From contig MU266505.1 of assembly GCA_021014945.1 (NCBI GenBank), positions 1 to 59,073 of the forward strand: 59,073 nucleotides of DNA. The letters run 5' to 3'. Shown piece after piece: positions 34,398 to 47,767 of this stretch. How positions within the stretch are numbered: the first letter of the stretch is position 1; every line of letters begins with the position of its first letter. The notes below the pieces were generated by a model that ran no database searches, had not been told where the DNA came from, and saw only the letters and a program-made list of their open reading frames with translations. The position numbers and the translations under genes were made by a program. Origin of the DNA: Leucogyrophana mollusca. Its lineage: Eukaryota > Basidiomycota > Agaricomycetes > Boletales.

Positions 34398-35701
34398 ATG
34401 GATTCGAGTTCACTGCCTATCCTCCAGCCCTACGTCGACCGCCTACAGGCCCAAATGCTGGATGACCTGTGCACCACGATGCCGCACTTGACAGAACTAT
34501 ACCAGTACTACGTTCGCCTGCACTCAAAGCGCCTTCGCCCCGTACTGATCTTGTTGATGGCACATGCAACTAATGGCCTTGGTAGCGCGTGGTCAACAAA
34601 AGAGCATCCTCAGGGGACTGACGAAGGTCAGCATGATTAACGCTCAGTCTCATCGGCGCGTACCAACGTGTGAGGCCCACACAGATGACACATGTTGCAT
34701 AGACCACTGTGGGTTAGCAAATGTGATTTTACCGGGACAATTGAAGCTGGCCGAGGTCATAGAGATGATTCATGTAGCTTCGGTGAGTTTGGGTTCCCTC
34801 ATTCCTAGGGTGGTGATCCGTGTACAAACGGTTCTGCCTGGTAGCTCATGCACGACGACGTTATCGACGAGTCGCCGTTGCGTCGCGGTGCGCCCTCGGC
34901 CCCCGCTCGGTTCGGAAACAGGGAGTCCATCCTTGGTGGCGACTTCCTCCTTGGACGTGCTGTGATGCTTAGCGCCAGCTTAGGAGACCTGGAGGTGATG
35001 AGTGAAGTAGCGGGGGTTCTCTCTACGCTCGTTGAAGGAGAGCTCCTACAAGCTCAAAAAGGCGTGAAATCGACAGGTGATGTGGGTACGTCTGACTGGG
35101 ACGCGTATCTCGACAAGACATACATGAAAACCGCGAGTTTGTTCGCGCGTGCGCTTCGCTGCACCGTCATCCTCGGCGGTGCCACCAAATCTGATCCCCT
35201 CCGAGAAATAGCGACAGAGTTTGGAAGCCAGCTCGGTATGGCGTTCCAGGTATGCGAATCGAGGCTCGTGTCGACATCCTCTTACTGACCACCTTCCATA
35301 GATCATAGACGACATCCTTGACTTCACTGGTGGCGACGCGATGGGAAAGCCGGTGGGAGCAGACGTAGAGCTGGGCCTTGCAACAGCACCCATCCTCTTT
35401 GCTCTAGAGGAGGACGACAAGATGCAACCCCTAATAGACCGCCGCTTTCGGGATCCTGGGGATGTTCAGCAGGTCAGTCCTGTGTCTTCGCTCGCATGAG
35501 GGTACACATTTAGAATCATAACTGTGGTATCCTCCACAGGCGATCCAGATAGTGAAGGACACGAACGCTTTGGCTCGTTCACGGACGCTGGCGTCTGTAT
35601 ACGCACAAAAGGCCTACGACGCATTGGGCTCTCTACCCGCGAGTCCGGCTAAAACTGTGTTGCAATGCCTGGCAATGGGCGTTATCACACGAGATCACTA
35701 G
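34398..35701 (+). CDS. All-trans polyprenyl diphosphate synthase, COQ1-like
   Basis: The enzyme elongates allylic diphosphates with IPP. Exon 1 (MDSSSLPILQPYVDRLQ) covers the early helices with SKRLRPVLILL. Exon 2 ends IEMIHVAS and exon 3 opens LMHDDVIDESPLRRG, the first Asp-rich motif. ILGGDFLLGRA and LVEGELLQ follow, a KTASLFARAL helix, then across an intron IIDDILDFTGG, the second Asp-rich motif. The last exons contain GKPVGADVELGLATAPILFAL and a C-terminus ending VITRDH. The set matches the COQ1/long-chain group, not the fungal GGPP synthases, which read LL-DDIEDNS at the first motif. The residue five before the first Asp is Ala, which by the known rule allows products longer than C15. 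A housekeeping COQ1 should exist elsewhere; cluster position suggests a specialised duty. The whole gene is an insertion relative to the right duplicate. Confidence 0.88.
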
Positions 35702-35744
35702 GCCTTCTGGTCCATTACATCTGGTGTGGTAGCAGTTGTAATTT

Positions 35745-35980
35745 GCAGTCGAGGCGTCCTAGGTGTTTTCCGTATTTCAAGCGTGCTATGGTTTTACCGA
35801 CTCGATGTCAAGGTTGTTCGTGATCGCCGAAACGCAAAGTTGTCCCCCCAGATGGGTTTCATTGCAATCTAGATAATCATTGGCCTGCTCAACACTGAGG
35901 CTGGTTAGTCTCGGGGTTGCGCTGGGTGCGGCAGATATGAGGGAGGGGAGAAATCTGTCGTGGAGAAATAATGCTCTATC
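35745..35980. repeat. Segmental duplication, left copy, part 2
   Basis: Sequence from TCGAGGCGTCCT onward aligns with 50838-51125, continuing the alignment interrupted at 34070. The intervening 1.67 kb with the prenyl synthase is absent from the right copy. Confidence 0.75.
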
Positions 35981-44753: not shown

Positions 44754-45623
44754 TCATAGAACCGACGCTGATATCGTTAGCCAAACCCCTGCTAATATCT
44801 TGTGATCGTGTCTCATGTTCGTTACTGTAGTATATATTCTTTAGTGGCTATCCCCCTGCTCAATAGAGGATTGAATAATATCTGGAGTGAGGTGCGCGTG
44901 TACATTTTGAGTGCTGAATGCGTCCCTGACGACCTCGAGGCCTGTTGCCAATGCGTCAGCATCCATGCGACATCATCTTTGATGATAAACCAATGGTGGT
45001 CCCATCCATCGCGTGAGCACTTCCCAGCGCTACAGATCGGGAACTCTGAAGACCGGGAATTGTGTTTCTGTTCTCACTGACCCTGCGTTACGGTTGTGAT
45101 GTTCTTGAGATGCGACCGCTTGGGCATATCTAGATTCCCTGGTGGAAGATTCAGCTTCCTCCCATGACTTGACAGCGGAGGAGCCCGTCAGGACGGTTTT
45201 GAAGTTAGATGCCCATGGAGTCCGGCAATCTTTTGGGCCTACACGGATCCCCATTAAATGAGATATTAACAAGCGCGGTTTTTACGAGCACTGACCGGTT
45301 GCCCTGCTCAATCTGGAGTGTCTTGCGACCGAGTCGGACCGAGGACACCAAACTGAACATGCGTGGATCAAGGACATATTCTGATGCGGTCAGGCACGCG
45401 AGCAGTGCTGCAATACATCAGGACGCAAATTCTGACCTCTGCAATGCTGATATCAAAGGACACGGCCGGCGGCGCAAACTCAATCTTCTAGTTTGACAAC
45501 GCTGTGATAACAAGAAATGGGGTGAGGTCTAAACGCGCTGTCAGAGGGCGAGGGGTTTGCCGGACAACGGAGCAAATAATTGGAGCACCATTCGTGCGCC
45601 CGAATCTACGCTCATAACCCTCA
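44754..45623. other. Intergenic with possible minus-strand remnant
   Basis: Minus-strand frames around 45.03-45.40 kb read DPRMFSLVSSVRLGRKTLQ and GPKDCRTPWASNFKTVLTG. They look protein-like but cannot be joined or named. A small or decayed gene downstream of P450 copy 3 is possible. Confidence 0.3.
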
Positions 45624-47767
45624 TCAACTAGAGAACGCCCGCCCCTTCACTACAGCTGCGGCCTCACTCGAGCTCGCAACAATCTTCACGGGAAATGGCT
45701 CGGGGAAGCTAAAAGCAGACAGGACGTGAAGTTATCATCTGTCGCTGTTCGGGGATAGCTTACCTAACTAAACCAGCAGTAAAGGATGGCTGAAGAGGAA
45801 TCTCCTTCTCGTCGTGATCCTTTTCCCTCGAGATATCCACGGTGGCCATTATATGCGAAACCAACAAAAAGAGGTTGTTATCGCCAAGGTGCTTCCCGGG
45901 ACAGATACTTGCGGAACGTATCAATGATGGCCGCGGGATAGGGTGATACAACTTACCGTCGCCCAAAACCAAATGCGTAGTTATACGGATCTATCGCTGT
46001 ATCCTTCACGCAACTAGTCAGGAATCTTTCGGGAGCAAATTTTTCGGACGGAATGCCGCTCCGGTCATCCTTGGAAATGGCCCTAAGATGAAGTCAAGAT
46101 AGTCGGCAACTGCCAGAGTCATACCGGACCCACCACACATTCGGCAACACGATGGTGCCTTTGGGGATGTAATATCCTACCAAGATTGCGATTCAAATCC
46201 GTAAGAGGAATAACGAACATAATAATGCTGTATCCTACCTTTGTAGAAATCCGCTTCACTCGTCTGGCGAGCTATTCCCAGAGGAAGAACTGGGCTCCAT
46301 CGCAAAGCTTCCTTGATTGTCGCATTGACATACGGTAAAGCGTCTCGATCCTGGAACGAGGGAAGTCGACCACTTCCAACTACTTGTGTAATCTCGTCTT
46401 TGATTTTGACTTGAACTTCCGGGAATAACGCCATCGCTAGAATGAATGTCAAGATGGTACCGTATGTCTATCTCACAGCAGACGTCAGTCAGTCGGACGG
46501 GTGAGGTAAAGACGAGAATCTTACGCTTTCTCCACCAGCTTATTTACACACTTAGAAATGGGCAGAACAACGAGAGGAAGGAAAACGTACCACCATACAT
46601 CGCGCCTGCTGCCCATAAGATATGATGGTCTGACTCGTCAGTGCCCTCCATCTCTCGTTTGTCTAAACAGTCGGCAGTAAACGACGGATTTTCTGTTCCT
46701 TTGGCCCTTTCGCGCTTGACATGCTCGAAAGGACGCGTTACGAGTGCTTCGATGCGCCGGCGGCCATCCTCTCCCGTCTTGTGAATAGAATTGAATGGAA
46801 TCCAGGATGGTATATACTTGACTATAAACGAAGTGTTAAGAAGGAGATTGCATGACCGTAACAAAAAAACTTGCGTTGAGGAATAAGATCCGTCAGAAAG
46901 GCGCCCGGCACCGTTGCCTTTCCGATCATCTCCATGGTCCTTTCGGCATCAGTGATATACTGGAGACACCGTTGGCCGTGAGATCCAAGCTTCTGACATG
47001 CAGAGCACAAGACGCACTACTCACAAGGTCATCTGGTGTTTGTACCGGTAGCCCATATGTTACAGACATGATTACCCGGCCAGCCGTTCTGTAAATTCCT
47101 CAGCGACCATTCCGAGATACGATGCGATCGGAAAACATACAGGCGGAGTTGAGAGGCAAAGTCTTCGGGCTTCTCGAGCAAGCTGTTGACGTACATAGCT
47201 ACAATATCTTCTTGAACGGTGTGGTATTTCTTCACGGCTTCGGGACTGAGAGCCGTATGTGCTAGCTTTCTCTGCTGTTTCCATGCAGCACCGTATTGAA
47301 GCATGGGCATGCTCTACGGCTGTCAGGATGAGCTGCACACAGGTTTTCGAAAAAGTTCAACCTACATTGTCAAGTCCCATCAGTTCACCGACCATCGTCA
47401 AAGTGGGACGATCAGAGTAAACAGACGCTCTTTTCTCCAGAAGGTCGGTCACCGCTTCCATGGTGTTGAGAATAAGGATACCGTTTCCGAGGGCTTCTGC
47501 GTACACGACACCACCTGCACAAGTGTTGTGTAAGGAGGAAGCGCCAAAAAAAAATGAAACATCCATACCGTACTGATGTTTCCAGCTGAGAAATGTATGC
47601 CATGCCCGAAAACGAGGGATTTGGAGCAGATTGCCGAGCAGAGGCTGACGGGGAGGTCCGGGAGGGAAAGGACAACCCCTGGAAGATCTGTCGGCCAGTG
47701 ATTTTCGACGCACAAGAAAGAGCGCAAAGGCGACAAAGATGACTACAAGAAAGTCTGAAAGCATCAT
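45624..47767 (-). CDS. Cytochrome P450, cluster copy 3 (CYP512/CYP5144-like)
   Basis: The N-terminus is [21 protein letters not shown] with proline hinge [20 protein letters not shown]. It is followed by [73 protein letters not shown] and [10 protein letters not shown]. The I-helix region carries [10 protein letters not shown] and the K-helix has [10 protein letters not shown] with ExxR. The heme loop is split by an intron: NYAFGFGRR / ICPGKHLGD. The C-terminus joins as [16 protein letters not shown] and ends FSS. All landmarks are present, so the enzyme should be functional. It is of the same broad clade as P450 copy 1 but clearly different in sequence, so not a recent tandem duplicate. It lies at the right end of the cluster, on the opposite strand to UbiA. 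Confidence 0.87.

What the first reader, a model, noticed from the sequence alone, without database searches (positions are those of the whole stretch)
34398..47767. Candidate terpenoid or meroterpenoid cluster built on a COQ1-like synthase and a UbiA-fold enzyme
Six adjacent genes (polyprenyl diphosphate synthase, methyltransferase, three P450s, UbiA protein) look intact and co-located. There is no classical soluble terpene cyclase, PKS or NRPS in the window, so the UbiA protein is the likely core enzyme. It has both Asp-rich motifs and belongs by sequence style to the group with the fumagillin bergamotene cyclase. Paired with a COQ1-type rather than GGPP-type synthase, it could cyclise an unusually long prenyl chain or prenylate an aromatic acceptor. 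I do not know of this exact gene set being described.
Basis: partly seen in the sequence, partly recalled or inferred. Interest (0 to 1): 0.9.

Follow-up and report, generated by a model that had tools for sequence, protein, structure and literature searches.

The report
Mushroom membrane terpene-cyclase gene cluster
A wood-rotting fungus carries a small gene cluster whose core enzyme looks like a membrane-embedded terpene-making cyclase with oxidising helper enzymes; clusters of this type are known, but its branch has no tested member that I found, and it sits beside an unusual copy of a coenzyme-Q chain-making enzyme.

Summary
The window is a Leucogyrophana mollusca contig. Five of the six genes align to relatives without a frameshift; the P450 at 37.8-39.9 kb does not. 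The UbiA protein is not COQ2 or COX10. It carries the UbiA-type terpene synthase motifs (NQxxSxxED, QDxxDxxxD) and falls in a strongly supported clade next to the characterised bisabolene synthases Tps1A/Tps2A. Two of the three P450 types share contigs with UbiA relatives in 10 other species (11 of 39 hits against 0.8 expected under uniform placing). So the core is a UbiA-type terpene cyclase cluster, a known kind (Antrodia tps1; Hericium eri).

Two things are less usual. The tyrosine shown to be essential in Tps1A (Y155) is histidine here and in 50 of 59 readable rows of this clade. And the neighbouring synthase is a COQ1 paralogue with no evident mitochondrial leader; the genome has its own COQ1, an FPPS and two GGPPS-like genes. 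That synthase shares no other contig with UbiA in the lists compared, and lies in a local duplication whose other copy lacks it, so its role is unproven. Aromatic prenylation is disfavoured by the motifs. Verdict: new variant of a known kind.

The parts
34398..35701 (+). COQ1-type prenyl diphosphate synthase paralogue; exons 34398-34626, 34718-34782 (34685-34782 in the deposited form), 34845-35249, 35302-35472, 35540-35701; no evident mitochondrial leader
   Evidence: deposited P0121
35996..37453 (-). SAM methyltransferase (Methyltransf_25)
   Evidence: deposited P0247
37783..39908 (+). cytochrome P450 'C'; frame and N-terminus uncertain, ends read by eye
40359..42594 (-). cytochrome P450 'D', 519 aa; type found on a UbiA contig in 4 other species
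   Evidence: deposited P0241
43697..44753 (+). UbiA-type terpene cyclase; exons 43697-43807, 43866-44250, 44303-44628, 44691-44753
   Evidence: deposited P0001
45624..47767 (-). cytochrome P450 'F', 12 exons; type found on a UbiA contig in 7 other species
32302..35965 (.). copy A of a local segmental duplication (32302-34065, 35748-35833, 35872-35965), with the synthase gene in the stretch 34066-35747
49055..51117 (.). copy B of the same duplication (49055-50819, 50834-50918, 51023-51117), without the synthase gene

Best explanation
A terpenoid cluster whose core is a UbiA-type (intramembrane, class I-like) terpene cyclase. The cyclase binds a linear prenyl diphosphate through Mg2+ held by D79 of the reduced first motif and D194/D197/D201 of the second, ionises it and cyclises it; FPP (C15) or GGPP (C20) is the likeliest substrate (inferred from Tps1A/Tps2A and EriG). 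P450s D and F, the conserved partners, oxidise the hydrocarbon (inferred). The methyltransferase caps an oxygen or acid made by a P450, as Tps1D does (inferred by analogy; orthology not tested). The COQ1-type synthase may be a lineage-specific addition that supplies the chain, or a neighbour with another job; I put its taking part at about 0.4. Shown: gene content, motifs, tree position, co-location of UbiA with P450 types D/F. Inferred: all chemistry.
For: Motif II QDxxDxxxD exact, motif I without the prenyltransferase acids (motifs from PMC9835599). The four Asp residues whose mutation killed Tps1A are conserved. In a 115-row tree the window protein lies in a 62-row clade (100/99) beside the 28-row clade (98/95) holding Tps1A and Tps2A; COX10, COQ2 and a PHB-type UbiA of the same genome are set apart by a branch of about 3 (support 91/91). 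AlphaFold pLDDT 94.9; all 15 PDB matches at E <= 0.001 are UbiA-superfamily enzymes. D- or F-type P450 on the contig of a UbiA relative in 10 other species: 11 of 39 P450 hits in 30 shared species against 0.8 expected under uniform placing in 45 Mb genomes; neighbouring locus tags in Tetrapyrgos (D9758_011278 F, 011279 UbiA, 011286 D). Hygrophoropsis aurantiaca has a D-type P450 and a methyltransferase on contigs of the same length, 8178 bases.
Against: Tps1A Y155, essential there, is H134 here, so the reaction could differ or fail. No expression or product data. Co-location rests on equal contig lengths in top-120 lists, six of the ten contigs are over 1 Mb, and the other 20 of 30 shared species show none. 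Only three methyltransferase rows were listed, and its linkage was seen in one other genome, with the P450 and not with UbiA.
Confidence: 0.72

Rival explanations
1. Full six-gene pathway with dedicated supply: the COQ1-type paralogue makes a medium-length chain (C20-C35) outside the mitochondrion and the UbiA cyclase cyclises it.
For: Neighbouring genes; no evident leader (30 aa before the first conserved block, COQ1 median 79); F209 in 18 of 18 paralogues against M in 92 of 99 COQ1s, and L151, A212, L213 in place of smaller residues, which may narrow the cavity; eri precedent of a dedicated synthase (PMC11969743).
Against: No other shared contig for synthase and UbiA in the top-120 lists, none in 6 species with both (the Hygrophoropsis contigs are short); the gene is present in only one of two duplicated flanks; one diagnostic change goes the other way (L279 for W in 80 of 99 COQ1s); Tps1A/Tps2A gave no extra product with a GGPPS (PMC9835599).
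Confidence: 0.25
2. Aromatic prenyltransferase (meroterpenoid): UbiA attaches a prenyl chain to a phenol or benzoate.
For: Fungal UbiA enzymes do this (LaPT3, PMC12790560; HGRIS_000139, PMC11574748); Boletales are known for prenylated quinones (recalled).
Against: Motif I lacks two of three acids and motif II begins QD where the aligned archaeal prenyltransferase has KD; far from COQ2 and the PHB-type paralogue in the tree; no PKS or AMP-binding match on the contig (limited sensitivity).
Confidence: 0.08
3. Chance neighbours or decaying remnant: genes that do not form one pathway.
For: P450 C has 1-2 frameshifts in three alignments; synthase linkage not conserved.
Against: UbiA-P450 co-location in other species; open reading frames and catalytic residues in the other five genes.
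Confidence: 0.1

Closest known systems
Antrodia cinnamomea tps1 cluster (Tps1A bisabolene synthase, P450 Tps1H, methyltransferase Tps1D)
   Same: UbiA-type cyclase with QDxxDxxxD, several P450s, a methyltransferase; UbiA 46% identical to P0058, which I take for Tps1A because D100, Y155, D215, D218 and D222 sit at the published numbers
   Different: Neighbouring clade, H instead of the essential Y155; no reductase seen (none was searched for); the sections I read name no prenyl diphosphate synthase in tps1
Hericium erinaceus eri cluster (EriE GGPPS, EriG UbiA-type cyclase, P450s EriA/C/I)
   Same: Prenyl diphosphate synthase + UbiA cyclase + three P450s (PMC11969743, passages)
   Different: Synthase there is a GGPPS, here COQ1-type; eri has two UbiA genes, a glycosyltransferase and oxidoreductases; here a methyltransferase. 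EriG was not in my tree
Fma-TC, beta-trans-bergamotene cyclase of Aspergillus fumigatus
   Same: Same UbiA-type cyclase motifs according to PMC9835599
   Different: Ascomycete; its sequence was not in my data, so the grouping was tested only through Tps1A/Tps2A
COQ1 polyprenyl diphosphate synthase
   Same: Same fold and both DDxxD motifs; own-genome COQ1 (P0150) 43% identical over 90% of the query
   Different: No evident leader; separate 18-row paralogue clade (SH-aLRT 83, quick tree); seven diagnostic positions

Membership tests
UbiA-type terpene synthase | UbiA fold (Pfam PF01040) | tested here: met
   104.8 bits, cut-off 34.2; AlphaFold and Foldseek
UbiA-type terpene synthase | Motif II QDxxDxxxD | tested here: met
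   QDFGDADGD at residue 193
UbiA-type terpene synthase | Motif I NxxX(G/A)xxxD in place of NDxxDxxxD | tested here: inconclusive
   NQTFSKHED: N and last D kept and the prenyltransferase acids lost, but the fifth position is S, not G/A as the paper writes it; S also in P0061 (probably Tps2A) and in 16 of 28 rows of the Tps clade
UbiA-type terpene synthase | Groups with characterised UbiA cyclases, apart from prenyltransferases | tested here: met
   115-row tree; Fma-TC and EriG not included
UbiA-type terpene synthase | Cyclase activity | not testable with these tools
   needs expression
Tps1A/Tps2A bisabolene synthase subgroup | Inside the Tps1A/Tps2A clade | tested here: not met
   separate 62-row clade, 100/99
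Tps1A/Tps2A bisabolene synthase subgroup | Essential tyrosine Y155 | tested here: not met
   H134; H in 50, Y in 8, T in 1, gap in 3 of 62 window-clade rows; Y in 27 of 28 Tps-clade rows
COQ2/PHB aromatic prenyltransferase | NDxxDxxxD motif | tested here: not met
   NQTFSKHED
COX10 / COQ2 housekeeping | Grouping with them, or no other copy in the genome | tested here: not met
   genome has a COX10-like (L001) and a COQ2-like (L007) locus by my reading; tree
Housekeeping COQ1 | DDxxD twice, PF00348 | tested here: met
   DDVID, DDILD; 203.6 bits
Housekeeping COQ1 | N-terminal mitochondrial leader | tested here: not met
   30 aa before the conserved block, COQ1 median 79, own COQ1 83; length only, no targeting program was run
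Housekeeping COQ1 | Inside the COQ1 clade | tested here: inconclusive
   18-row paralogue clade outside it, but support only 83 in a quick tree with long-branch warnings
tps1-type cluster | P450 and methyltransferase orthologous to Tps1H and Tps1D | not tested
   no Taiwanofungus row among the 120 listed
eri-type cluster | GGPPS-type synthase | tested here: not met
   COQ1-type; GGPPS-like loci lie on C14 and C24

The most novel reading that the evidence does not exclude
A COQ1 paralogue left the mitochondrion, had its chain cavity reshaped (M to F, A to L, G to A, A to L) and now makes a C20-C35 diphosphate for a histidine-type UbiA cyclase, giving cyclic terpenoids from a chain source not known to me to feed this enzyme family.
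Probability: 0.18. Interest if true: 0.75.

Novelty: new variant of a known kind. Interest (0 to 1): 0.48.

Why it matters
The 62-row UbiA clade spans Boletales, Agaricales and Rickenella, has many Suillus copies, and my searches found no characterised member. Besides many other differences, one position shown to be essential in a tested relative (Tps1A Y155) is mostly histidine here, so an exchange experiment could show what that position controls. The 18-row COQ1 paralogue clade is a second set of enzymes for which I found no product.

Tried and rejected
Rejected: UbiA as COQ2/COX10; synthase as sole COQ1; PKS, AMP-binding or soluble terpene cyclase match on the contig. Tried without result: a cavity comparison from coordinates (no model files in the box); a paper on octaprenyl synthase chain length (not held); tps1 orthology of the helpers (no Taiwanofungus row); Fma-TC and EriG sequences (not named among the listed hits). 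The Pfam scan of the flanks covered 21 selected open frames only (of 26 window frames scanned), so flanking genes may have been missed.

Considered: the flanking repeat as a transposon. The genome search found it only twice, both here, and the copies are collinear, so a local duplication fits better.

One search also gave one synthase/P450 length coincidence outside the window (4744 bases: P0227, a COQ1-clade row, and P0339, unnamed metagenome rows from different sources). I take it for chance; it was not followed up.

Full report
What is there. The window is a contig of Leucogyrophana mollusca: deposited proteins 97% identical (over 96% and 100% of the query) to my hand models of UbiA and synthase come from a contig of exactly 59,073 bases. 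UbiA, synthase, methyltransferase, P450 D and P450 F align to relatives without a frameshift (the methyltransferase against P0273, with one frameshift against P0319). P450 C has its heme region but 1, 2 and 1 frameshifts against three relatives. Exon-level searches found no soluble terpene synthase, ketoacyl synthase or AMP-binding match on the contig (0 of 31, 0 of 22, 0 of 17 genome matches; for AMP-binding 15 of 58 candidates were scored).

The UbiA protein. Motif II is QDFGDADGD and motif I is NQTFSKHED. PMC9835599 (introduction, results and discussion read; [quoted passage not shown] The fifth position here is S, as in P0061 and 16 of 28 Tps-clade rows. Of 120 listed relatives, 108 matched my strict pattern for QDxxDxxxD, one had HD and 11 did not match (partial proteins included). 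I take P0058 for Tps1A because D100, Y155, D215, D218 and D222 sit at the published numbers, and P0061 for Tps2A with a start shifted by 12 or 13 residues. In a tree of 115 rows (110 of the 120 listed, those under 245 aa dropped; own COX10, COQ2, PHB-type and two cyclase-type genes added from exon readings) the window protein sits in a 62-row clade, 100/99, beside the 28-row Tps1A/Tps2A clade, 98/95. The branch to COX10/COQ2/PHB is about 3 changes per site (support 91/91); their own order is unsure, and the program warned of long branches.

A difference at the active site. D100, D215, D218 and D222 of Tps1A correspond to D79, D194, D197 and D201 here. Y155, whose change to alanine abolished Tps1A product (PMC9835599), is H134 here. 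In the 62-row clade it is H in 50, Y in 8, T in 1 and a gap in 3; in the Tps clade Y in 27 and H in 1 of 28; in the remaining 25 rows Y in 22, H in 3. Four Suillus proteins with Y (P0031, P0035, P0048, P0059) show that the change is not fixed. I therefore do not file the protein as a bisabolene synthase.

The cluster. I matched contig lengths between the 120 listed UbiA relatives, 120 synthase relatives and 120 relatives of a joined methyltransferase/P450 query; each list is the top of a longer one. Ten species other than L. mollusca have a UbiA relative and a D- or F-type P450 on one contig (D in 4, F in 7; typing). Over the 30 species in both lists, 11 of 39 P450 hits fall on a UbiA contig, 0.8 expected; on contigs up to 650 kb, 5 against 0.2. 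This assumes 45 Mb genomes and uniform placing. Locus tags are close in Tetrapyrgos (011278, 011279, 011286), Volvariella (009060, 009067) and Grifola (05751, 05759). The other 20 species show no shared contig, Hygrophoropsis among them, whose D-type P450 and a methyltransferase come from contigs of 8,178 bases while its UbiA is on one of 8,690. The methyltransferase matched three contigs of this genome, the window's included.

The synthase. By my reading the genome has a COQ1 with leader on C6, an FPPS on C166 and two GGPPS-like genes on C14 and C24. The window synthase belongs to an 18-row clade (support 83 in a quick tree, long internal branch, long-branch warnings) with Hygrophoropsis (two copies), Polyporales, Bondarzewia, Schizophyllum and one Mycena. 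Thirteen of the 18 have 24-40 residues before the first conserved block (30 in the window), five have 57-75; the COQ1 median is 79. No targeting program was run. Positions -5 and -4 before the first DDxxD are A and S, as in COQ1 and GGPPS, not F and F as in the FPPS of this genome, so FPP as end product is not suggested. Seven positions separate the clade from 99 COQ1 rows: F209 (18 of 18; M in 92 of 99; F also in GGPPS), L151 (17 of 18; A in 92), A212 (16 of 18; G in 85), L213 (16 of 18; A in 74), T170, T309, and L279, which replaces a larger residue (W in 80). That the first four line the chain cavity is inference, and L279 may point the other way. The fold matches solanesyl and octaprenyl synthases.

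Against a synthase-UbiA pairing. No other contig carries both in the listed proteins, and in 6 species that have both they are on contigs of different length (Hygrophoropsis contigs are too short to decide, and the Schizophyllum rows may be different strains). The gene lies in a local duplication at about 80% identity: copy A 32302-35965 holds it, copy B 49055-51117 has 14 bases in place of that 1.68 kb, and the genome search found no third copy. Thus the gene was gained in A or lost from B.

Known relatives. The eri cluster has a GGPPS, two UbiA genes and three P450s (PMC11969743, passages). tps1 has a UbiA cyclase, P450s, a methyltransferase that makes a methyl ester, and reductases (PMC9835599). 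Fungal aromatic UbiA prenyltransferases are also known (PMC12790560, results section; PMC11574748, one section). A Termitomyces paper classes its UbiA-type genes by prediction only (PMC8751386, passages). Searches for this clade or the COQ1 paralogues in print (listings, with the papers named here opened) showed no characterised member; the library lacks most subscription papers.

Verdict. The core is a known kind of cluster in a clade without a tested member that I found; the histidine and the COQ1-type neighbour make it a variant worth an assay. Interest 0.48.

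Noticed in passing
32302-35965 and 49055-51117: Local direct duplication of about 80% identity bracketing the gene block; the synthase gene is present in copy A only.
   Followed up: yes
P0162, P0171, P0172: Three COQ1-type proteins of Boletus coccyginus come from contigs of the same length (757780), so probably one contig.
   Followed up: no
G000 contig C20, 96566-102145: AMP-binding matches at 96.6-97.6 kb and UbiA matches at 101.1-102.1 kb lie about 3.6 kb apart; the UbiA type was not read.
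   Followed up: no
G000 contigs C291 (two), C55, C295: Four more UbiA loci with QDxxDxxxD and D at the fifth position of motif I; no P450 match on these contigs (92 of 306 candidates scored).
   Followed up: partly
window 15327-16870, 4956-5942, 24754-26295: SEC61-type translocon (SecY) exons, a WD40 protein and a HET-domain ORF in the left part of the window.
   Followed up: no
window 872-1817 and 26846-27780: About 65% identical DNA between two places overlapping ORFs with only below-cut-off Pfam matches.
   Followed up: no
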